Shown: in pieces, positions 851 through 26,838 of the stretch
Layout of the letters: each line of letters begins with the position of its first letter
Numbering within the stretch: the first letter of the stretch is position 1
IMG/VR virus record: IMGVR_UViG_3300025000_000340
Coordinates: 1-29,009 of that record
DNA: 29,009 bases
Direction: 5' to 3' (one strand)
DNA from: a virus
Position numbers and translations under genes: made by a program
Notes under the pieces: generated by a model
What the model was told of the DNA's origin: nothing
Seen by the model: the letters and a program-made list of their open reading frames with translations, nothing else
Databases searched by the model: none

Positions 851-1195
851 CTATTTGTACCCCATGCAGTGTCGCAACTCATGTTGCAATTGAAAATCAA
901 AACCGCTATACCAAATCTCGCATCCCTTCACCCCACCAGTATTGTCATATGAAACCATGCAGCATGCCGGGACTATGCCAAAATTAAGGAAAACCGATGC
1001 CACTGACAGCCACGGTTTGTACGGCCAGGTCGCTTTGTGGCAGGCTATTGAGGTCGTTACAAAATTTCCTTTGTGGACAATGAGGTTCATCTCAGCAAGC
1101 GGGGTCTCGTTGGTTACTCCTTTCTGTAACGTACGCCCAGGCATCGGAGCGCAGGATGACATGAGCAGAGCGAGGATGGCTATCAGGCGGATCAT
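851..1195 (-). CDS. predicted lipoprotein ending in an HEXXH motif, 114 aa
   Basis: An N-terminal hydrophobic segment (MIRLIAILALLMSSC) ends at Cys15 in a weak lipobox (MSSC). The protein is cysteine-rich (Cys52, 78, 79, 92, 110). Residues 105-109 read HELRH, the HEXXH zinc metallopeptidase signature, followed by CMGYK and the stop. The glycine spacing matches the start of HEXXHxxG, but the chain ends where a third ligand would be expected. It overlaps the upstream gene by ATGA. It could be a small cell-wall or peptide hydrolase used in lysis, or simply carry a chance motif; activity is unproven. Confidence 0.7.
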   Translation of the reverse strand: MIRLIAILALLMSSCAPMPGRTLQKGVTNETPLAEMNLIVHKGNFVTTSIACHKATWPYKPWLSVASVFLNFGIVPACCMVSYDNTGGVKGCEIWYSGFDFQLQHELRHCMGYK

Positions 1196-1464: not shown

Positions 1465-4155
1465 TTAGTAAATTTCTGGTGTGCCAGCATCCAACAGCGG
1501 ACTGCTTGGTAGCAACGTGTAATCACCTTGACTGAGATAATTTGCAGAATCTCCGGTAAATGCCGCGTTCGGCTCGGTGATTGCCCAGGCTCCATCAGTG
1601 CGGATAAATTCCATATATTCCGAGAAGGTCTTCGACCCTAAGCCGAATGTCTGAAGTAGGGTCTTAAAACCTGCAATGGTGCCCCCAAAAGTCGGACCAG
1701 TACCGTGGAACAGCATGATAACGAAGTTTGGCCCGCCGCAGCACCGTGCGGCAATGGCGAACGTTTCATCATCGACATTAGGGATATTCATCTGTGTAGA
1801 TGTAAATTCGTACAGATTTACAGGATCACCATATTTATACATTACTCCGTCATTAATCGTTGTACCGTTGGCAGCAGCAGCGCCAACTATATTGGAGTTA
1901 TCCTTCAACAGTGCCTCGACACTCGCCCTGCCCGTCCCATAAGCAGTACAGTAGGTTTTGCATACGTAGGCTGGTGATGGTGGGTCGATGGTTGTTCCGG
2001 TAATTGCGTTGCTGCCGTTTCGGTCTGATCCTGTATTAACATACGCCTCAAGATCAAGAATGGATTCCGTGACTTCAAAACGATTATATGCCGTGTCGTC
2101 CCACACTGCTATGTGAGCAGTTGAGATAGATTGAGCAGTTACATTAGCAAGGCAAAGGGAGAGCATGTAGTCGCTGTTTACAGCCCCTGCGGTGATATAT
2201 TTTGTGCACGTCACCACCCCATCGCCTACAGAATTTCCGTGTAATACAGTAATAATACTGACGAGAGTCGGATAGGTAGTCAGGTCGAAACCTTCTGTCA
2301 CGCCGTTTATCGTGACAGATAATGTCCCTGTCCACATCGATGAATCCCCTGTCCGTGTCCCTGCGATAGTCAGCGTTGGAGATGTTCCTGTCGCTGAAAT
2401 TGTAAACGCACTTAGCGTGGAAAGGTTTGAGTGAGTTGCCCCGTGGCATCCTATTTCATTACCATCTGCAATCAACGCTCTCATCGTGTCAATTTCCAAT
2501 GCAGTTGGACGAGTTTGAGATACTGCACTATGGATATCCACGTAATGTGATACCTTTATCTCAGGATTAAGCGCTGCTGCATCCGCCACCGAGATATCCA
2601 AATTGTTACGGTCGTCAAAACGGATTACCAAATCTCCAATAGAGTCATTTTTTGGTGTTGTAAACTCTGGATCAATACTCGCAATGCTACCTGTGACGAC
2701 TGATTTATTGCTCGTATCAAATGTTTTTATACTGGTTGCCTTGGGTTGCCCATGATAATAACAATTCGTTACTACCGGGGCCTTGCTGCTTGCCCCAGAT
2801 TTTATCGGATGAACCCCGAAAAATATTGAATCCGATACGTTTATGGTAGTTGCAGCTGAATTTCCAATATCAAGAAAGCTCTCTGTAAGGGCAGCCCCAG
2901 TTCCCAATACAACACACTTGTTCATTCCAACTGTACTTCCAGCGGGGATACTGTTTATGCACCCTGCATGGTCAAAAACACAGTAATTTAAATACAATTC
3001 AGCGGCGGCAGTGAGATATAATGGGCGTGAGTTTTTGTTAGTCGCAAACGACTTGTGGAATTTAGATCTACTGAATGTATGCTTTCCACCGGATATAGTC
3101 GGTGGGGATGTATAGATATCCCAAGGATAAAATTGGACATCTATCCACTGTGTTTCGCCCGCTGCGCCCAGCAGCAATGGATTGATAAACTCCTGAAATG
3201 TGAATTTATGCTTGATATTTATAAACTTTGCGACACCAGCTGTATGCGTCGTTCTTATCCTCCCGTCAATCGTCACCAAACCGCTATGTCCAGCTGTTTT
3301 ACTGCCCTGAACAACAACCCCTTTAGATACATCAAAATTGGTGGTGTAGGTTTTCCCTGCTGCTCCACCTGAAACCTCTATCACATCACCAGCAGATGCG
3401 GCAGTATGGGCCAGAGCCAGGGTTGTCTTGGCGTTTGCCCAGGACAGCCCATCTCCTGTCCCGGTGGCCGCTGAATCCACATACCAATCTGGCGTAGCAA
3501 GTGGCTCGGGATCGGGCATTGGATAGGGACCGATATTGGATGGAATGGTGCCGGACGGCTCATAGCCAATCGTAAAGCGAGTCCCAATGGGGAGAAGGAA
3601 AGAGGTATCGGCGCTGCCGTAATGTGTTGCTCCATCTGCCACACTATACCCAACCTCGTTGGCATAGTTCGTTCCGCTCCCATCCACTCGCTCAGTGATA
3701 GTCGTACCAACCAACCCTGTCAGGTGATGGCCATTACCCGAAGCATCCAACTCAGTCGTCTGGCCGACATTAACGCCCGGCCAGTACGCCCACAGAACGC
3801 CATCGAGAAACGCTCGCACATCGCAGCAATCAGGGCCGGGGAATGTAAGCGTGCCATTGACTGTGCAGGTCGGCAGATCGCCGGTTGCGGTGAATGTGTG
3901 CGCTGTGGTCAGGCCGGTTACTAGGGCACTGCCTGCGCCGGAGAAGCCGCTGGACTTTACTTGCTGGGTGGTGTGGCTCGAGGGCGGGAGGTATGCTCGG
4001 AGTTTGCTGTCGATGATGTCGGTGCGGTACCAGGCCAGCAAGTTCTCGGTATCGGGGTACAGCCCTGCGTCACCGCCGGCAGCCAAGCCGGAGCCGAACT
4101 GCTGGCCGAACGGCTCGTTGATTAAAGAGCGGAACGGGTCGAAGAAAGCAGACAT
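1465..4155 (-). CDS. tailspike: parallel beta-helix with an inserted CE4/NodB deacetylase-like domain
   Basis: Receptor-binding tail protein of 896 aa. I chose the ATG at 4155 because AGGAG lies 7 bases upstream and it falls just after the previous stop; an in-frame ATG at 4173 would add six residues. Residues below are numbered from 4173. Residues 1-225 form an N-terminal part with a DASGNGHHLTG segment. At about 228 (DWYVDSAATGTGDGLSWANA) a right-handed parallel beta-helix of pectate-lyase type begins and runs to about 505 (SIDPEF). Residues 513-865 resemble a polysaccharide deacetylase: RFDD (Asp520, Asp521) like motif 1, EIGCHGATH (His577, His581) like motif 2, and FVIMLFHGTG (His823) like the C-terminal catalytic His. 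The helix then resumes with a closing repeat, DYTLLPSSPLLDAGT. This suggests that it binds and deacetylates host surface polysaccharide. Confidence 0.85.
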   Translation of the reverse strand: MSAFFDPFRSLINEPFGQQFGSGLAAGGDAGLYPDTENLLAWYRTDIIDSKLRAYLPPSSHTTQQVKSSGFSGAGSALVTGLTTAHTFTATGDLPTCTVNGTLTFPGPDCCDVRAFLDGVLWAYWPGVNVGQTTELDASGNGHHLTGLVGTTITERVDGSGTNYANEVGYSVADGATHYGSADTSFLLPIGTRFTIGYEPSGTIPSNIGPYPMPDPEPLATPDWYVDSAATGTGDGLSWANAKTTLALAHTAASAGDVIEVSGGAAGKTYTTNFDVSKGVVVQGSKTAGHSGLVTIDGRIRTTHTAGVAKFINIKHKFTFQEFINPLLLGAAGETQWIDVQFYPWDIYTSPPTISGGKHTFSRSKFHKSFATNKNSRPLYLTAAAELYLNYCVFDHAGCINSIPAGSTVGMNKCVVLGTGAALTESFLDIGNSAATTINVSDSIFFGVHPIKSGASSKAPVVTNCYYHGQPKATSIKTFDTSNKSVVTGSIASIDPEFTTPKNDSIGDLVIRFDDRNNLDISVADAAALNPEIKVSHYVDIHSAVSQTRPTALEIDTMRALIADGNEIGCHGATHSNLSTLSAFTISATGTSPTLTIAGTRTGDSSMWTGTLSVTINGVTEGFDLTTYPTLVSIITVLHGNSVGDGVVTCTKYITAGAVNSDYMLSLCLANVTAQSISTAHIAVWDDTAYNRFEVTESILDLEAYVNTGSDRNGSNAITGTTIDPPSPAYVCKTYCTAYGTGRASVEALLKDNSNIVGAAAANGTTINDGVMYKYGDPVNLYEFTSTQMNIPNVDDETFAIAARCCGGPNFVIMLFHGTGPTFGGTIAGFKTLLQTFGLGSKTFSEYMEFIRTDGAWAITEPNAAFTGDSANYLSQGDYTLLPSSPLLDAGTPEIY

Positions 4156-18075: not shown

Positions 18076-18221
18076 CCACCATACTGCTTGCTTGGATTGA
18101 ATGCGTGTATAAGAAGGATTTCGAGCTTCTGTACATTGGTACAGTGATTATTGATGTTGTAGCGGTTATTACTTTAGCAGAGTTGGTAACAGCAGCACTT
18201 AAATTTTTGGGCAACTCATGA
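18072..18221 (+). CDS. small membrane protein, 49 aa
   Basis: Joined by ATGA overlaps to genes on both sides. The product begins MTTILLAWIECVYKKDFELL, then has a long hydrophobic segment (YIGTVIIDVVAVITLAELV) long enough to span the membrane. Function unknown; support is coupling plus a membrane-like composition. Confidence 0.55.
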   Translation: MTTILLAWIECVYKKDFELLYIGTVIIDVVAVITLAELVTAALKFLGNS

Positions 18222-19780
18222 CCATCCGTGTCTTAAACGACCACTACGTCATCGAGTCCGACAACGCCGGCCAGTTCCGCGCCCTGTTCCCTGATCTCAA
18301 GGAGGCGGTGGTGCAGGGACGTCAGTTCGTCGCCGTGCCGCACACCCTCGAGGTCGCCCGGGTGCTCAATAACATCGGCTGTAAAGTTCAGTCCCCGATC
18401 AGGACACAGTACGACTGGCCCGGGAGATACACTCCGAGGTGGTATCAAATTGAGTCGGCGGAGTTTTTCACCTTTTACTCTCGCTGCTACTGCCTATCCG
18501 AGATGCGTACGGGAAAAACCCTCAGCGCCCTGTGGGCTGCCGACTACCTCCGCCGCGCCGGCAAGATCCGCCGCACCCTGATCGCCGCCCCGCTCTCCAC
18601 CATCTACGATGTCTGGGAGCAGAACATCTTCGAGAGCTTCCCGCTGCGCACCTTTGCCGTCTTGCACGGTAGCCGGCAGAAACGCCTTGAGCTACTCGCT
18701 CGGCCGCATGACTTCTACATCGTCAATCATCATGGCATGGGGCTTATTGAAGAAGCCCTTGCCGCCCGCCCGGACATCGACCTGGTGATCGTTGATGAAT
18801 TAGCCGAACTTCGCTCAGCGAAAAATAAGAAGGGCGTCCTGTGGGCGCCGATGAACCGAGTATTGAACAAGCAGGGCATTGTCCGCTCCGCCTGGGGATT
18901 GACCGGTACACCGACTCCAAACGAACCACCTGACGCCTTCGGACAATGCAAGCTGATCACCCCTGAGAACTACCGAGGCCACTTCACCAGCTTCAAGCAC
19001 GAGACCATGCTGCAGTTTGGACCGTTCAAGTGGGTGCCAAAGAAAGGAGCAGAGGAGTCCGTCGCCAGGATATTGAAACCAGCCATCCGGTTCAAGCGGA
19101 CGGTCTGCTCCACCATGAAGCCATGTTTCATCGATCGGCGGGCCCAGTTGTCGGCGGAGCAGGAGAGAGCGTACAAGCAGCTGCGCAACCAGGCTGCCAC
19201 CGACCTGCGAGGACAGACAGTTACAGCAGTTAATGCTGCGGTATTATTGAGTAAATTGATACAGGTCAGCTGTGGCGTAGCTTATGATGCAGAAGGTAAA
19301 CTGGTCAAGTTCGACTTCGGCCCGCGGTTGAAAGTCCTTGAGGAACTGATCGAGGCCAACAACGAGAAGGTCTTGGTCTTCGTGCCGTTCACCGGGGTTC
19401 TGAACACCCTCGCCACCGAGCTCCGCAAGCGGTGGTCGGTGGCAGTCGTCGACGGCAGCGTCTCGGCCGGCCGGCGAGCGCAGATCTTCCGGGAGTTCCG
19501 TTCGCTGCCCGATCCATGGATCATCATGGCCAACCCGGACACCATGGCCCACGGTCTCGACCTCACCGCCGCTTCCCTGTCGATCTGGTATGCCCCTTAC
19601 TTGAAAGCAGCCAAGGTCCAGCAGGCCAACGCCAGGACAGATGGGTCAAAACAGTCGGCCAAAATCGACATCGCCCATATCTATGCAACAGCCGAAGAGA
19701 AACGTGCTTACGATGTCTTGCTCGGTAAGGGGCGCTTTCAAGACGTCGTCCTGGAGATGGCAAACAAAGGAGGAAGGTAA
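18218..19780 (+). CDS. SNF2-type (superfamily 2) DNA helicase/translocase, 520 aa
   Basis: Motifs in order: EMRTGKT (Walker A, 95-101), LIAAPLS (motif Ia), VDELAEL (192-198, Walker B, DELA rather than the usual DEAH/DEAD), WGLTGTPTPN (motif III, 226-235), KVLVFVPF (motif IV), MANPDTMAHGLDL (motif V) and QQANARTDGSKQ (motif VI, 468-479, Arg473). The compact size and GLTGTPTPN place it in the phage SNF2/RapA-like group. These remodel or reanneal DNA and help in replication or recombination. It is coupled to the genes on both sides by overlaps. The N-terminal 70 residues are a separate small domain without a known motif. Confidence 0.9.
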   Translation: MTIRVLNDHYVIESDNAGQFRALFPDLKEAVVQGRQFVAVPHTLEVARVLNNIGCKVQSPIRTQYDWPGRYTPRWYQIESAEFFTFYSRCYCLSEMRTGKTLSALWAADYLRRAGKIRRTLIAAPLSTIYDVWEQNIFESFPLRTFAVLHGSRQKRLELLARPHDFYIVNHHGMGLIEEALAARPDIDLVIVDELAELRSAKNKKGVLWAPMNRVLNKQGIVRSAWGLTGTPTPNEPPDAFGQCKLITPENYRGHFTSFKHETMLQFGPFKWVPKKGAEESVARILKPAIRFKRTVCSTMKPCFIDRRAQLSAEQERAYKQLRNQAATDLRGQTVTAVNAAVLLSKLIQVSCGVAYDAEGKLVKFDFGPRLKVLEELIEANNEKVLVFVPFTGVLNTLATELRKRWSVAVVDGSVSAGRRAQIFREFRSLPDPWIIMANPDTMAHGLDLTAASLSIWYAPYLKAAKVQQANARTDGSKQSAKIDIAHIYATAEEKRAYDVLLGKGRFQDVVLEMANKGGR

Positions 19781-20094
19781 TGCAAAGACACATCAATGAC
19801 ATGATGGCCGGGGAGCATATCGTTCTGATTTTTCCAACATACCGAGACGCCAGAGAAGCCGCGAATAGCCGCTGCCCACCGGGGGCAATAAATATTCTGA
19901 GCGAAATACGGCTGGAGCACAGGCCATCCGCCGGATGGATTCAGTTTGGTTATGCTGGGATGAATTGTGAAAGGTTACAAGGAATCCTTGCTGACATCCG
20001 TTTTGTGTCAGACGCAGATCTCTTAGTAACCAGTCAATTTAAAGATTTCGCCCGGGAAAGGTCTGATAGGTATATCAAGCATAACGGATTATGA
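19780..20094 (+). CDS. hypothetical protein, 104 aa
   Basis: The start overlaps the helicase stop (TAATG), with AGGAGGAAGG upstream. The product begins MQRHINDMMAGEHIVLIFPT and appears alpha/beta: an IVLIFPTYRDAREAA opening like a Rossmann-type beta-alpha unit and an acidic middle, ending KHNGL. No catalytic motif identified. It overlaps the PP-loop gene by ATGA. More AT-rich than the helicase. Confidence 0.65.
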   Translation: MQRHINDMMAGEHIVLIFPTYRDAREAANSRCPPGAINILSEIRLEHRPSAGWIQFGYAGMNCERLQGILADIRFVSDADLLVTSQFKDFARERSDRYIKHNGL

Positions 20095-20987
20095 ACCTTT
20101 CACTCATAGAAATACATCAGCGGCAGAACCTCCCGCTCGATCAAAAGATTGCCTGGGCAAGGGATCGGATAAAGGAGTGGTACGAAGCTTGGGATGGGAA
20201 GGTCTATGTCGCCGATTCTGGCGGGGCTGACTCGACAGTGCTTCGACATCTGGTTCGACAACTATACCCCGATGTACCCTCGGTATTTGTGAATACCGGG
20301 CTTGAGTTTCCTGAAATCGTCGCATTCATGAAAACCATTTCAAACATAGTATGGTTGAAACCGAAAATGCCCTTCGTAGAAGTCATCAAGCGGTATGGGT
20401 ACCCTGTGGTAAGTAAAGAGGTCGCCATGGCTATTTCTCGCTGCCGAAATACAAAGTCAGAGGATCAGCGGAGGTTGCGCCTGTATGGTGGTACGAACCC
20501 CTCCACCGGTAAAAAGCAGTCTGTCGGAGTGATTCCACAGAAGTATCATTATTTAGTCACTGCGCCTTTCAAAATCAGTGAGCAGTGTTGCGAATGTATG
20601 AAGAAGCAACCGTTCTATAAGTACCACAAAGACACTGAACAAGTTCCGTTTGTAGGAGTAATGGCGGCTGATGGCCGAAGCCGGCTGCGAAGTTACGCTG
20701 CTCATGGATGCAATATCTTTGACCGAAAGAAGATGATGTCTCGCCCGCTTTCAATCTGGACCAAGGACGATATCTGGCGATGTATTAGAGCAGGCATACC
20801 TTATAGCCCTATCTACGACATGGGCTACGACAGGACGGGCTGCGTGTTTTGCATGTTCGGGTGCCAGATGGAGAAAGAGCCTCGCTTTGTGAAACTGAAA
20901 CAAACCCACCCAAAACTCCACAGATACTGCATGGAGTATCTCGGGCTGAGAGAAGTCCTAGAGTTTATGAATATACCCTATGAATAA
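20091..20987 (+). CDS. PP-loop ATPase, PAPS reductase-like (phage CysH family), 298 aa
   Basis: SGGADS (43-48) is the pyrophosphate-binding PP-loop, followed by VNTGLEFPE (68-75), the second ATP-pyrophosphatase signature. Later EQCCECMKKQPF (165-175) and TGCVFCMFGC (249-258) give cysteines 166, 167, 169, 251, 254 and 258, suited to an Fe-S cluster or sulfur relay. Phages carry many such proteins, annotated as phosphoadenosine phosphosulfate reductases. Actual roles of PP-loop enzymes include sulfur transfer to tRNA or DNA, so true PAPS reduction is not proven. The tRNA-like gene lies about 75 bases downstream. Confidence 0.85.
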   Translation: MNLSLIEIHQRQNLPLDQKIAWARDRIKEWYEAWDGKVYVADSGGADSTVLRHLVRQLYPDVPSVFVNTGLEFPEIVAFMKTISNIVWLKPKMPFVEVIKRYGYPVVSKEVAMAISRCRNTKSEDQRRLRLYGGTNPSTGKKQSVGVIPQKYHYLVTAPFKISEQCCECMKKQPFYKYHKDTEQVPFVGVMAADGRSRLRSYAAHGCNIFDRKKMMSRPLSIWTKDDIWRCIRAGIPYSPIYDMGYDRTGCVFCMFGCQMEKEPRFVKLKQTHPKLHRYCMEYLGLREVLEFMNIPYE

Positions 20988-20989
20988 AA

Positions 20990-21042
20990 AGTAAACCCCT
21001 TCACAAATAATTGTTGACAACCCGTTTACAAAGAGCTAAGGT
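20990..21042 (+). promoter_or_regulatory. promoter of the tRNA/downstream operon with AGTAAACCCC box
   Basis: AGTAAACCCC (20990-20999), then TTGACA (21014-21019), a 17-base spacer and TAAGGT (21037-21042). The -35 is perfect, the -10 weak. GTTGACAAC is itself a palindrome across the -35, and GTTTACAAA in the spacer is the complement of TTTGTAAAC seen at 13073. It likely drives the tRNA and the 21187-28462 genes. Confidence 0.6.
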
Positions 21043-21061: not shown

Positions 21062-21163
21062 CGCAGCGTGGTGGAATTGGTAGACGCCTGACCAACCAGT
21101 AATATGTCAGAGGAGTAAGTTGGTTGCTTACTTTTGCAGGTTCGAGCCCTGCCGCTGCGACCA
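21062..21163 (+). tRNA. aberrant class II (Leu-like) tRNA with enlarged anticodon loop
   Basis: A perfect 7-bp acceptor stem (21062-21068 with 21153-21159), a Leu-type D arm (GTGGAATTGGTAGACGC), a perfect T arm (GCAGG-TTCGAGC-CCTGC), discriminator A and encoded CCA are all present. The anticodon stem CTGAC/GTCAG (21088-21092 with 21106-21110) encloses 13 bases instead of 7, with no T at the place of U33 counted from the 5' side, so no anticodon can be assigned. The variable arm AGTAAG/CTTACT has a 7-base loop. CAACCA in the anticodon loop is exactly complementary to TGGTTG in the variable loop. It may be functional RNA, decoy or degenerate tRNA. Confidence 0.75.
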
Positions 21164-21186: not shown

Positions 21187-21435
21187 ATGAAATACGAAAT
21201 CAGCGGGATAAAATATGAACTCGCCAATAAGCGGGGAAAAGCACGGCGAGTGAGAAACATAAACCGCCCAGAATGTCCTGTGTGTAAGAAAAGACTGCGT
21301 CTGGTCCTGGTAAGCACACCTTGGCATGACCACCTATTTTGGGACTGCCCTTGCACGAAGCAATTATTGGAGGATATACAGGCCTGTAAACTGGTTGCGG
21401 ATAGAGACCTAGAAGATGAAGGGAGAACGGAATGA
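21187..21435 (+). CDS. zinc-ribbon protein, 82 aa
   Basis: Preceded by GGGAAG six bases upstream. The product begins MKYEISGIKYELANKRGKARR, with a basic N-terminal part, then CPVCKKR and, about 25 residues on, DCPC, giving a four-cysteine ribbon (CxxC...CxC). First protein gene after the tRNA. Coupled to the next gene by ATGA. A nucleic-acid-binding role is plausible from the basic N-terminus. Confidence 0.65.
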   Translation: MKYEISGIKYELANKRGKARRVRNINRPECPVCKKRLRLVLVSTPWHDHLFWDCPCTKQLLEDIQACKLVADRDLEDEGRTE

Positions 21436-22181
21436 CCAAACCAGTAGGTATGATGAGTATGGCGGAGTATAAGATCCTGCACCAGGTCTGCCCGAAGTGC
21501 GGCAGGGCCCCGAACCGGCTCACCAGTGTCAACTACCCGGCCCCGCCGGACCTCAACGTCGTCGAGTGCATGTGCAACTGGATCGGCACTGTCAACGAAC
21601 TGAAACCTCAAAAGAAGAAGGAGACCACCATGCGAAGCCCGAAAAAAAACAGACCCGATCCAACCGGTTGCCCGATCTGCGGCCACACAGAGTTTTCTTC
21701 GACGTTACTTGGAAGTATTGGCGGGATAGATGCTAATATTCTGACTTGTGGTAACTGTTTGTGGAAAGGTATTCGAAGTGACCTTGGCTACACTGTGGCC
21801 ATTACTGTCGATATGGTCATCGAGAAGTACGTTGCCACTCGAGACCTGATCACGGAAAAGAAAAAGGCCCTTGACGCCGAGCTTGCCGACCTCAAGGCCC
21901 TGCAGGAGAAACGCGAGGCCTGGCTGATGTCCGAGATGACTCGGGTCGGTGCCACCTCGCTGAAGACCCCGCACGGCACCAGCTACATTGAAACCATGGA
22001 CTCTGTTTCCGTGGCTGACTGGGAGACATTCTTCACTTGGGTCCAGGCCAACGCCGAGTTTGAGTTCCTGACCCACGCGGTCTCCAAGACCGCGGTCAAG
22101 CAGCGACTCGAGGACGGGCAGGCGCCTCCTCCGGGGGTTAATTTTACAACATTCAAAGGCATTAAGGTGAGAAGATCATGA
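21432..22181 (+). CDS. two zinc ribbons plus coiled coil and conserved phage C-terminal domain, 249 aa
   Basis: Residues about 20-50 form ribbon 1 (CPKCG, then CMCNW). Residues 80-112 form ribbon 2 (CPICG, then CGNCLW). A charged coiled coil follows (EKKKALDAELADLKALQEKRE). The C-terminal HGTSYIETMDSVSVADWETF ... SKTAVKQRLEDG ... PPGVN resembles a conserved domain I recall near ssDNA-binding and recombination genes in many phages; its function is unknown. An internal ATG at 21630 has a perfect AAGGAG six bases upstream, so a 183-residue product starting MRSPKKNRP is also likely. The long form may be a fusion of two former genes. Confidence 0.7.
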   Translation: MTKPVGMMSMAEYKILHQVCPKCGRAPNRLTSVNYPAPPDLNVVECMCNWIGTVNELKPQKKKETTMRSPKKNRPDPTGCPICGHTEFSSTLLGSIGGIDANILTCGNCLWKGIRSDLGYTVAITVDMVIEKYVATRDLITEKKKALDAELADLKALQEKREAWLMSEMTRVGATSLKTPHGTSYIETMDSVSVADWETFFTWVQANAEFEFLTHAVSKTAVKQRLEDGQAPPPGVNFTTFKGIKVRRS

Positions 22182-23961: not shown

Positions 23962-26838
23962 ATGTTCCTACACCGGCTCCTTCCCGGAGAAGGGTATTAC
24001 TGCGTCGCGATGCTGTTGCCTGGTGGTGGGTTTCGTCATTATTTCCACGACAACCTCGACGCCGCCGTAGCCAACCTCCTCGCTTTGGATAAAGGCGGCA
24101 ATACCGTATACATAACTCAGGCGGCATTCAGCCCTGAGAAGATCGAAGAGGCCCAGGCGCATAACCGATCGCTGCCACGGGGGCTGCTGAAGGACGAGTA
24201 TAAAAAACTCGCCATGAAGACCAGGAGCCAGGTCAATACCCTGACCCTGAAGAACTTCTTTTTGGACATCGACTGCGGCGAGAAGTGGCCGCTGAAGAAC
24301 CAGAGCGAGGGCTGCCAAGCCCTGAAGCAGTTCATCGATGACACCGGCCTGCCGATGCCCGCCGTGGTCAACTCCGGCAACGGCCTCTATGCCCACTGGA
24401 TCCTCACTGAGCCGATCCCTACGGCGCAGTGGCAGACCGTGGCCTACACCCTGAAGAAAGTCGTAGCGGCCTACGCCCCTGCGATCGGTGCCGATTCTTC
24501 CCGCACCTCCGACCCGGCCTCGGTCCTGCGCATCCCCGGCACGACCAACCGCAAGCCCGGCAAGGAGCCCAAGCCGGTGCAGCTGATCCACGACCCAGGC
24601 GACATCGAGTTCGAGGAGTTCACCGCCCGCCTGCTGGCCGCAGCGCAGAAGAAAAAGGTCCAGCACCAGGCTTTGCTGCCTCCGAAAGTCAACACTGATA
24701 TCAACGCCGAGTTCTTCGTCCATGACGACGTGCCCAGCGACGCCAACCTGATCGCCGACAAGTGTGCTCAGATCAGCCAGATGCGAGCAACAGGGGGCAA
24801 CATCAGCGAGCCTGTGTGGTATGCCTGCATCGGTGTCCTGGTTCACTGTGTCAACGGGCCGGAAATTATCCACGCCTGGTCGCAAGGCTACTCCGGCTAC
24901 ACCGTCAGTGAGACCGACGCCAAAATCCAGCAGTGGCGGGACGCGGGAGTGGGACCTACGACCTGCGCCAAGCTCGGCTCCGAGAACGCCGGCGGCTGCA
25001 TCGGCTGCCCGCACAATGGCAAGATCAAGAGCCCGATCGTCCTCGGTCGGCCGGAACCGGCGAAAAAGGAAGTCCCTGTCGAAGAGTGCGAACCGCCGGC
25101 CGGCTACCGCCGCACCGAGGAGGGGCTGTTTGCCGAGGAGGAGGGGCGCTGGGTACGCTTTTATGATCAGGACCTGCACATATCTTGTCTCGCTTACGAC
25201 GAGTCGCTGGGCTACGAGGTGACCACCCTCCGGCACCGCTTGCCGCACGAGGGCGAGATGGAGTGTACGATCAGGTCGTCGCTGGTCCACGACCCCAAGG
25301 CGCTGATGACCATACTGTCAGACAATCATATCAAGGTGGTAGGCATGAATGAAAAGAAAAAGATGGTTGGCTACATCGAGTCGTACCAGGCGAAGCTGCA
25401 GAGAAACCGTCGAATGACCCGACTGCTATGCCAGATGGGCTGGAAAGAGACCAGCGGCGGCAAGCCGATGTTCGTCCATGGCAGGAAGATCTACCATGCC
25501 GACGGATCCTGTGAAGAGGCGAGTTTGGCCCGCAACGTGCCGAAGTCGGCGGAGGGTTTCCGGCAGCAAGGTTCGCTTGAGAAGTGGTCGGCAGCCACCG
25601 AAGTCTTTACCAACCGCGGCATGGAGCCGTTCGCTTTCGCTCTGCTGGCCGGGTTCGGGGCCCCGCTGATGAAGTTCACCGGCTTTGACGGCGCCCTAAT
25701 CTCAATGGTCGGCGAGTCCGGTGCCGGCAAGACCCTGATGCTCCGTTTCAACCAATCGATCTGGGGCTACCACAACGACCTGATGATGCTCAGAGACGAC
25801 ACCAAGAACGCGTTGGTGTCCAGGCTCGGGGTCTACGGAAACCTGCCGCTGGTGGTCGACGAGGTGACCAACATGCCGGGGATTGAGATCTCGGACTTCG
25901 TCTACAAGGTCACCCAGGGGCGGGACAAGGCACGGCTGACCAAGAACTCCGAGGAGCGCAAGCTGATCAACGCCTGGAACACCCTGGCTGTAACCTCGTC
26001 GAACGCCTCGTTGATCGACAAACTCTCCGAACTCAAGCACGACGCCTCCGCCGAGATCAACCGGGTCTTCGAGTACCCGGTGCCGGAGATGGACTGCTTC
26101 AAGAGCCAGGTCGCCTCGCAGACCTACTGGACCATCCACGAGAACTTCGGCCATGCCGGCGAGGTCTACGCTAAGTACCTGGTACGCAACATCGACGTGG
26201 TCAAGTTCGCCATCGATAAGATGCGCGAGAAGATCGACCTGCGGGCGAAGGTGCGGGGGGATGAGAGGTATTGGTCGGCCGTTGCTTCGGCGTCTCTAGT
26301 CGGCGGAGCGATCGCCAAGTCGCTGGGGCTGATCAAGTTCGACGTGGTGCCGACGATGGAGTGGGTGATCAAGGTAATCCGCAACATGCGCGGCGACAAA
26401 GACGATCTGGTCGGCGACCCGGTCGGCATCCTTGGCCAGTTCCTGGATGAACACGCCTCCAACCGTTTGCTGGTCAAGGGCGACTATCGGCCAAGAGGTA
26501 TCTGCACGATCATCGAAGCTCCGCGGGGCCCGCTGCTGATCCGCTACGAGTTGGACAGCAAGATTCTCTACCTGTCCCGGGCGGCGTTCAAGACCTGGGT
26601 TGCCCGCCGGTTTGGGTCCTATACCCAGATCAAGGTCGAGCTTGAGAAGAAGAAGATTTTGCGGGATGCCAACAAGCCGAAGTGCTTGGGGTCGAACACC
26701 TTTTACGACTCAGCCTCGCAGCCTTGCTGGATGATCGATATGAAGAACCCTAAACTGGGGGCAGTAGTGGAGAACTTGGTGGAGGTAGCTGATGCACTGG
26801 CAAAAGCACCTCTGCATTTAGCCGGGAAAAGGAAATGA
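23962..26838 (+). CDS. primase-helicase: prim-pol (AEP) plus DUF927 ATPase, 958 aa
   Basis: The start is set by GGAGG six bases upstream. The N-terminal prim-pol domain shows FFLDIDCG (Asp102, Asp104), VNSGNGLYAHW (His145) and SSRTSDPASVLRIPGTTNRK, with R190-IPGTTN the typical nucleotide-binding end. A cysteine cluster follows (Cys335, Cys346, Cys349, CPH), a likely zinc site. The C-terminal DUF927-type P-loop ATPase has GESGAGKT (584-591, Walker A) and LPLVVDEV (Asp633, Glu634, Walker B). Together these make primers and unwind DNA at the fork, replacing separate DnaG/DnaB functions. It is the largest gene in the window and GC-rich like the polymerase. Confidence 0.9.
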   Translation: MFLHRLLPGEGYYCVAMLLPGGGFRHYFHDNLDAAVANLLALDKGGNTVYITQAAFSPEKIEEAQAHNRSLPRGLLKDEYKKLAMKTRSQVNTLTLKNFFLDIDCGEKWPLKNQSEGCQALKQFIDDTGLPMPAVVNSGNGLYAHWILTEPIPTAQWQTVAYTLKKVVAAYAPAIGADSSRTSDPASVLRIPGTTNRKPGKEPKPVQLIHDPGDIEFEEFTARLLAAAQKKKVQHQALLPPKVNTDINAEFFVHDDVPSDANLIADKCAQISQMRATGGNISEPVWYACIGVLVHCVNGPEIIHAWSQGYSGYTVSETDAKIQQWRDAGVGPTTCAKLGSENAGGCIGCPHNGKIKSPIVLGRPEPAKKEVPVEECEPPAGYRRTEEGLFAEEEGRWVRFYDQDLHISCLAYDESLGYEVTTLRHRLPHEGEMECTIRSSLVHDPKALMTILSDNHIKVVGMNEKKKMVGYIESYQAKLQRNRRMTRLLCQMGWKETSGGKPMFVHGRKIYHADGSCEEASLARNVPKSAEGFRQQGSLEKWSAATEVFTNRGMEPFAFALLAGFGAPLMKFTGFDGALISMVGESGAGKTLMLRFNQSIWGYHNDLMMLRDDTKNALVSRLGVYGNLPLVVDEVTNMPGIEISDFVYKVTQGRDKARLTKNSEERKLINAWNTLAVTSSNASLIDKLSELKHDASAEINRVFEYPVPEMDCFKSQVASQTYWTIHENFGHAGEVYAKYLVRNIDVVKFAIDKMREKIDLRAKVRGDERYWSAVASASLVGGAIAKSLGLIKFDVVPTMEWVIKVIRNMRGDKDDLVGDPVGILGQFLDEHASNRLLVKGDYRPRGICTIIEAPRGPLLIRYELDSKILYLSRAAFKTWVARRFGSYTQIKVELEKKKILRDANKPKCLGSNTFYDSASQPCWMIDMKNPKLGAVVENLVEVADALAKAPLHLAGKRK

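What the first reader, a model, noticed from the sequence alone, without database searches (positions are those of the whole stretch)
21062..21163. tRNA with enlarged anticodon loop complementary to its variable-arm loop
Acceptor, D and T arms and CCA are excellent, so the gene is under constraint. Yet the loop closed by CTGAC/GTCAG has 13 bases. CAACCA at 21093-21098 is exactly complementary to TGGTTG at 21121-21126 in the variable-arm loop, so a six-pair kissing interaction or an alternative helix is possible. No anticodon follows normal rules. It might resist a host anticodon nuclease, act as a decoy, or sense a ligand or stress.
Basis: partly seen in the sequence, partly recalled or inferred. 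Interest (0 to 1): 0.75.

Follow-up and report, generated by a model that had tools for sequence, protein, structure and literature searches.

The report
Phage leucine-type tRNA without usable anticodon
A bacterial virus carries a small gene that keeps the top half of a leucine tRNA (the part that enzymes load with leucine) but has replaced the part that reads the genetic code, and other viruses carry similar RNAs, which hints at a tRNA-like job outside ordinary protein synthesis.

Summary
Bases 21062-21163 form a Leu-type tRNA body (acceptor, D and T arms, A73, CCA) whose anticodon stem closes a 13-nt loop; there is no 5-7-5 anticodon arm. It is not an isolated oddity. A related phage has a tRNA at the same locus with 53/54 identical body positions and an unrelated centre; two more relatives carry the same body with compensatory acceptor changes and further centres. 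I collected 25 such genes: acceptors pair 7/7 in 22, A73 in 23, U48 in 24, while positions 26-33 look random. 21 distinct bodies keep 99.4% of pairs through 83 two-sided changes. Decay does not explain this. The kept set matches what published work says E. coli LeuRS needs; the lost parts are dispensable there. Best reading: a decoding-dead, probably leucylated 'top-half' tRNA from an operon leader. What it does is not shown; titrating or decoying acceptor-end enzymes, or mRNA punctuation, are candidates. The loop-loop complement (P about 0.016) is not kept in the relative; antisense pairing is no better than chance.

The parts
21014..21042 (+). Promoter: TTGACA (21014-21019), 17-nt spacer, TAAGGT (21037-21042)
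   Evidence: Sequence. The -10 is weak and the consensus scan misses it, but TTGAC[AT]-N17-TA[ACG][AG][AG]T recurs after the helicase gene in divergent relatives L166, L167, L172, L173, L176, and the window's own version in L012-L017.
21062..21163 (+). Leu-type tRNA-like gene with no usable anticodon
   Evidence: Rfam tRNA 29.5 bits; covariation of bodies
21062..21068 (+). Acceptor stem 5' strand CGCAGCG, pairs with 21153-21159
   Evidence: 7/7 pairs; pairs 1-72 and 2-71 show compensatory changes in relatives
21071..21087 (+). D arm GTGGAATTGGTAGACGC with A14, A15, G18G19, A20a
   Evidence: Identical in L021; Leu-type in L087, L166, L195, L196
21088..21110 (+). Anticodon-position hairpin: CTGAC, 13-nt loop CAACCAGTAATAT (21093-21105), GTCAG
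   Evidence: Sequence, constrained fold
21111..21135 (+). Variable arm AGGA-GTAAG-TTGGTTG-CTTAC-TTTT; last base is U48
   Evidence: Constrained fold; U48 kept in 24/25 class members
21136..21152 (+). T arm GCAGG-TTCGAGC-CCTGC
   Evidence: 5/5 pairs; one compensatory change in L166
21153..21163 (+). Acceptor 3' strand CGCTGCG, discriminator A73, encoded CCA
   Evidence: Sequence
21187..21435 (+). 82-aa ORF starting 23 nt after the CCA (no Pfam match); first gene of the operon behind the tRNA
21432..22181 (+). Gam-like / Gp157-like protein (weak match); the gene behind the same promoter in relatives
   Evidence: phrog_253 Mu Gam-like 2.4e-5; relatives
18218..19780 (+). DNA helicase, the syntenic anchor used to find relatives
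   Evidence: phrog_62 7e-82; relatives
20091..20987 (+). PAPS-reductase-family gene upstream of the promoter; lies between helicase and promoter here, not in L021
   Evidence: phrog_424 1.5e-49; L021 promoter follows the helicase directly

Best explanation
The gene makes a decoding-dead Leu-type tRNA. It is transcribed as a short leader (start about 21049, inferred) of the operon that begins at 21187, cut out by RNase P and the host 3' processing enzymes, and, because it keeps the leucine identity set (A73, A15-U48, G18G19, A20a, D-T loop contacts) while lacking an anticodon, very probably charged with leucine by host LeuRS but unable to read a codon. Its function therefore lies in the top half (acceptor, T and D arms) and the central third is free to be replaced. 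Shown: the body is constrained and covaries, and the centre is replaced between relatives. Inferred: transcription, processing, charging. Not shown: what the charged or uncharged top half does. My first guess is that it engages or titrates enzymes that act on tRNA top halves; my second is that it punctuates the leader mRNA.
For: Syntenic relative L021: body 53/54 identical and promoter conserved, while flanking genes have synonymous difference 0.32-0.56 (dS 0.41-1.02) and the centre aligns no better than shuffled (P 0.23). L087 and L166, related phages, carry the same body with compensatory acceptor changes and other centres. Six bodies: 100% paired, 7 double-sided cells, 0/500 shuffles. 21 bodies: 99.4% of cells paired, 83 double-sided cells, all seven acceptor pairs covary, though the search pattern for most of them never asked for the acceptor. 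In 25 genes U48 is T in 24 (P 2e-14), A73 in 23, acceptors 7/7 in 22, while 26-33 including U33 look random. Second independent pair L056/L102: body 54/54 identical, anticodon loops 10 and 19 nt and unrelated, flanking DNA 73%. PMC9976931: E. coli tRNA-Leu without anticodon arm and variable arm is still leucylated; A73, A15-U48, G18G19, A20a are needed. PMC11143913: RNase P accepts acceptor-T-stem substrates.
Against: No expression, processing or charging data. U48, A15 and G18G19 are needed for any tRNA elbow, so they do not prove LeuRS recognition. The D-loop and T-loop motifs were part of the search pattern. The promoter-plus-body segment of window and L021 could be alike through a recent exchange rather than selection. 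L195 and L196 lack an encoded CCA. L082 and L097 have G73. The class was picked by hand, and seven members can form a 4-5 pair, 17-nt arm somewhere in the centre. Some members are near other tRNAs (L074, L050, L076, L097).
Confidence: 0.55

Rival explanations
1. Decaying phage tRNA-Leu: an ordinary tRNA lost its anticodon arm through insertions and is on its way out.
For: The tRNA is absent or a fragment in other relatives: L030/L013 keep only the first ~24 nt, L016 and L014 a few bases. ARAGORN does not see it.
Against: Body 53/54 identical where flanking synonymous sites differ by 32-56%; compensatory changes in the acceptor and T stems of related and unrelated phages; U48 kept in 24/25.
Confidence: 0.15
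2. Leader punctuation: the tRNA shape is an RNase P and 3'-end cutting site that trims or stabilises the downstream mRNA, and charging is irrelevant.
For: Sits between promoter and first gene in window, L021 and L166. Next start codon 15-37 nt after the 3' end in L021, window, L087, L195, L044. RNase P is known to cut other phage RNAs (M3, C4; PMC11143913).
Against: Many close relatives use the same promoter and operon without it. A73, D arm and U48 would not all be needed for RNase P alone. L056/L102 lie in a ~900-nt non-coding stretch far from a start codon.
Confidence: 0.25
3. Kissing-loop or two-state RNA switch, as the first reader proposed (loop-loop pairing CAACCA/TGGTTG, or the alternative 8-pair helix).
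For: Exact six-base complement; P 0.016 by shuffles; alternative helix only about 2 kcal/mol weaker.
Against: Not kept in L021; centre-closing stems over 24 genes not above shuffles (combined P 0.31).
Confidence: 0.05
4. tRNA as a scaffold for a variable antisense or guide segment.
For: Constant frame with variable centre is what such a design would look like.
Against: Longest complement of each centre to its own phage is 9-11 nt, as in shuffles, for four phages. Host targets could not be tested.
Confidence: 0.08
5. Functional decoding tRNA after removal of a small insertion (intron) or by unusual decoding.
For: Some phage tRNAs met here (L048, L035, L064) look like Leu(UAA) with an insert between U34 and A35, so inserts do occur.
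Against: No pair of cut points in the window's 13-nt loop or L021's 23-nt loop leaves a canonical U33-anticodon loop by eye; no group I or bulge-helix-bulge motif seen; the two loops share nothing.
Confidence: 0.07

Closest known systems
Bacterial tRNA-Leu (class II)
   Same: Acceptor, D arm, T arm, A73, A15-U48, G18G19, A20a, CCA, long variable arm
   Different: No 7-nt anticodon loop, no U33, no anticodon; centre replaced between close relatives
Minimal E. coli tRNA-Leu variants lacking anticodon arm and variable arm (Larkin 2002, as reviewed in PMC9976931)
   Same: Keeps what LeuRS needs, lacks what it does not need
   Different: Those are laboratory constructs; here it is a natural phage gene with an unrelated centre
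Phage tRNAs that evade tRNA-targeting defences (PMC10264068, PMC11555353; abstracts read)
   Same: Phage-borne tRNA gene
   Different: Those keep a working, slightly altered anticodon loop or replace cleaved host tRNAs; this one cannot decode
Phage T4 RNAC and RNAD, small RNAs of the tRNA region with unknown role (PMC3014915)
   Same: Phage RNAs made alongside tRNAs with no decoding role known
   Different: Not compared by sequence here; resemblance is a lead only
Phage RNase P substrates M3 RNA and C4 antisense RNA (PMC11143913)
   Same: Phage RNAs cut by RNase P
   Different: Not tRNA-Leu bodies as far as I know; not compared by sequence here
Allo-tRNAs and other non-canonical class II tRNAs (PMC7609411)
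   Same: Odd class II tRNAs
   Different: They keep a 7-nt loop and decode; acceptor branch is 8/4 or 9/3 (from memory), here it is 7/5

Membership tests
Canonical decoding tRNA | 7-bp acceptor, 5-bp T stem with TTCRANN loop, CCA | tested here: met
Canonical decoding tRNA | 5-bp stem with 7-nt anticodon loop, U33 and an anticodon | tested here: not met
   13-nt loop, A at the U33 place; ARAGORN no call; none in L021, L087
LeuRS substrate (leucine identity set) | A73, A15-U48, G18G19, A20a, D-T loop tertiary bases | tested here: met
   Sequence of window and class counts against the published list
LeuRS substrate (leucine identity set) | Is aminoacylated with leucine | not testable with these tools
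   Needs transcript and enzyme
tRNA pseudogene | Body drifts at the neutral rate, stems broken | tested here: not met
Intron-containing tRNA (group I, bulge-helix-bulge) | Insert whose removal restores a 7-nt loop with anticodon | tested here: not met
   13-nt and 23-nt loops inspected by eye; no Rfam group I match
tmRNA or permuted tRNA | Split halves with tag reading frame | tested here: not met
   ARAGORN tRNA/tmRNA search found none at this place
RNase P substrate | Cleaved at the acceptor 5' end | not testable with these tools
   Needs processing assay; acceptor-T domain with CCA is present

The most novel reading that the evidence does not exclude
Phages of several unrelated lineages carry decoding-dead Leu-type tRNAs that keep only the leucylatable, CCA-bearing top half, and use them as decoys or sinks for host enzymes acting on tRNA acceptor ends, including acceptor-end-directed antiphage effectors (3'-CCA pyrophosphorylating toxSAS, tail-cleaving Cas12a3, acceptor-extending MenT; PMC11559606, PMC12851939, PMC10435456).
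Probability: 0.18. Interest if true: 0.82.

Novelty: new variant of a known kind. Interest (0 to 1): 0.58.

Why it matters
Why phages carry tRNAs is an old question, and the usual answers (codon supply, replacing cleaved tRNAs) both need an anticodon. A recurrent phage tRNA that keeps the chargeable half and discards the anticodon would point to a role outside decoding. ARAGORN skips nearly all such genes, so they would have gone largely uncounted. The idea is directly testable with one transcript, LeuRS and RNase P.

Tried and rejected
Kissing loops: P 0.016, not conserved. Antisense or guide function: complement to own phage no longer than in shuffles for four phages. Leader-trailer helix around the window's tRNA: P 0.013 uncorrected, lost in L021; strong only in L056/L102. 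Common closing stem in the centres: not above shuffles. Common neighbour gene across the class: none found among ORFs within 3 kb, apart from related phages. Known ncRNA families at 14 class loci: only tRNA plus two unrelated small RNAs. tRNA-Leu with the same acceptor in 85k species genomes: no match to a strict pattern. Isolated-phage relative of the tRNA: none, only partial matches; nearest isolated phages by helicase share 33-39%. Paper searches for oversized phage anticodon loops found no description; the library is partial. Hits set aside from the class: tandem-duplication artefacts (L046, L117, L118, L131, L144, L147, L148, L107), normal 7-nt-loop class II tRNAs, and intron-like Leu(UAA) genes in arrays.

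Full report
What is there. The window is a 29,009-base virus record. Bases 21062-21163 read as a class II tRNA: acceptor CGCAGCG/CGCTGCG, D arm of the leucine type (GGAATTGGTAGAC), T arm GCAGG-TTCGAGC-CCTGC, A73 and encoded CCA. Rfam's tRNA model reports it at 29.5 bits, cut-off 29; ARAGORN does not. The anticodon position holds CTGAC-[13 nt]-GTCAG, then a variable arm GTAAG-TTGGTTG-CTTAC. The complement CAACCA/TGGTTG is exact. With shuffled loop letters, six or more pairs occur in 1.6% of trials.

Surroundings. The gene follows a promoter TTGACA-17-TAAGGT and precedes an operon that starts with an 82-aa ORF and a Gam-like protein. The -10 is poor and the consensus scan misses it, but the same -35/-10 layout stands after the helicase gene in divergent relatives. 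Upstream are a helicase and a PAPS-reductase-family gene.

Relatives of the same phage group. Scans with the PAPS-reductase and Gam-like proteins, with the promoter and with a helicase alignment gave some 60 loci. One record (L022/L155) is identical to the window over 17,112 bases, so it is not independent. L012/L021 has a tRNA at the same place: 53 of 54 body positions identical, the centre unrelated (alignment score no better than shuffled, P 0.23). Its anticodon-position stem CTGAG/CTCGG still resembles the window's CTGAC/GTCAG, with one compensatory swap at the closing pair, but the loop is 23 nt and different. Flanking genes differ at 32-56% of synonymous sites; at the lowest of these rates one or no change in 54 sites has a probability near 3e-8 (my arithmetic). 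A recent exchange of the promoter-body segment could also lower divergence, which I cannot exclude for this pair. L087, a phage with the same gene order (helicase, Gam-like, 349 aa, 96 aa, primase), carries GCCAGCG...CGCTGGC upstream of what by position and relatedness is a nuclease-type gene, and L166 carries AGCAGCG...CGCTGCT behind its helicase promoter. Both have yet other centres (68 and 30 nt). L030/L013 retain only a 5' fragment, and other relatives have the promoter with no tRNA. Thus the element comes and goes, but where it is whole the body is kept.

Covariation. Six bodies (window, L021, L087, L166, plus L195 and L196 from a pattern scan) are 100% paired, with changes on both sides at three pairs, 0 of 500 shuffles as good for cells paired, two-sided cells and covariation score. 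The pattern fixed five acceptor pairs, so for L195 and L196 only pairs 1-72 and 2-71 are free evidence.

A wider class. A pattern for leucine-type D and T arms with an over-long centre and CCA gave 73 viral and 48 genome loci. Sorting them by acceptor pairing and by the presence of a 5-7-5 arm left three kinds: ordinary class II tRNAs with long variable arms, duplication artefacts, and genes with no normal anticodon arm. I kept 25 of the last kind by hand, counting L166, L195 and L196. Their acceptors, which the pattern never asked for, pair 7/7 in 22 and 6/7 in 3. A73 occurs in 23. The last base of the otherwise unalignable centre, position 48, is T in 24 (P 2e-14 against the centres' own composition). 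Positions 26 to 33, U33 included, look random. Twenty-one distinct bodies keep 99.4% of their pairs, with 83 two-sided changes and all seven acceptor pairs covarying; sliding the partners by 1-3 bases gives 35-43%. A second close pair, L056 and L102, repeats the pattern: 54 of 54 body positions identical, loops of 10 and 19 nt, neighbouring DNA 73% identical. In a scan blind to the centre (acceptor GCGCNTG), 15 of the other 16 loci hold a normal Leu tRNA, all but one with further tRNAs on the fetched locus (the exception, L202, is a 1.1-kb fragment); one locus, L205, has no complete tRNA after the 5' half (my reading). The two aberrant genes have no neighbour tRNA on the fetched DNA. In the class as a whole, about half of the loci have no other tRNA (my count), but several do (L074, L050, L076, L097), so solitude is a tendency.

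What it is not. Antisense: longest complements to the own phage are 9-11 nt, as in shuffles. Structured sensor: centre-closing stems are not above shuffles over 24 genes (combined P 0.31); individual centres fold a little better than shuffles, which variable-arm hairpins can explain. Leader-trailer helix: strong only in L056/L102. Shared neighbour gene: none.

Mechanism. The kept and the lost parts split as the literature splits tRNA-Leu for LeuRS. Reviewed work on E. coli states that tRNA-Leu variants without anticodon arm and variable arm stay active, and that A73, the A15-U48 pair, G18G19, A20a and the D-T loop contacts are needed (PMC9976931). The window has all of these. The same review says in one place that the anticodon arm is essential for LeuRS editing and in another that charging-active variants stay active in editing, so I draw nothing from editing. 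RNase P is reported to accept hairpins made of acceptor stem, T stem and T loop (PMC11143913). I therefore infer a matured, leucine-chargeable RNA that cannot decode. Shown: constraint on the body, replacement of the centre. Inferred: transcription, maturation, charging. Open: the use. Three uses fit a top half: decoy or sink for enzymes acting on acceptor ends, mRNA punctuation in the leader, or a leucine donor for a non-ribosomal reaction. Acceptor-end-directed antiphage effectors exist (PMC11559606, PMC12851939), which makes the first testable, but no evidence here selects it.

Verdict. Real, constrained, and part of a recurrent kind that ARAGORN mostly skips. I call it a new variant of a known kind (phage tRNA genes). 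I found no earlier description in the held library, which is partial.

Noticed in passing
L033, L034, L036-L039, L043, L053, L054, L062, L066, L072, L077, L078, L080, L090: About 16-18 viral contigs carry class II, long-variable-arm tRNAs with an anticodon loop such as CTGTTTA or TTGTTTC (anticodon GUU, normally Asn) on a TCTGGGG-like acceptor. An Asn anticodon on a Ser/Leu-type body is unusual.
   Followed up: no
L048:5454-5572, L035:6617-6733, L064 minus strand: tRNA-Leu(UAA)-like genes with a 30-45 nt insert between CTT and AAAA of the anticodon loop, the place of the group I intron in tRNA-Leu(UAA), but far too short for one. In L035 and L048 the array has other Leu tRNAs but no normal Leu(UAA).
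   Followed up: partly
L063, L114, L146: Leu-type tRNAs whose anticodon stem is extended to about 9 pairs with TTG...CAA above the normal stem and a further hairpin inside; two lie in bacterial genome assemblies.
   Followed up: partly
L056:~880-1015 (minus), L102:~3250-3415 (plus): The aberrant tRNA is bracketed by a long AT-rich inverted repeat whose arms differ between the two phages but stay complementary, in a roughly 900-nt stretch with few ORFs and no Rfam match beyond tRNA.
   Followed up: partly
window 25037-25123 (minus): ARAGORN calls a tRNA-Ala(CGC) antisense inside the primase-like ORF 23962-26838; probably a chance match.
   Followed up: no
L166:2768-2840: An 11-pair inverted repeat (TCCGCACCCGG...CCGGGTGCGGA) directly after the tRNA, enclosing about 50 nt; could be a further structured RNA.
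   Followed up: no
L108, L127, L151: Pedobacter genomes hold a near-identical class II tRNA with a possible GUC anticodon in a mismatched long stem and G73.
   Followed up: no
L028 / L014: The window's promoter sequence occurs twice in one relative, each copy in front of a different gene, as if the promoter is a mobile or repeated cassette.
   Followed up: no
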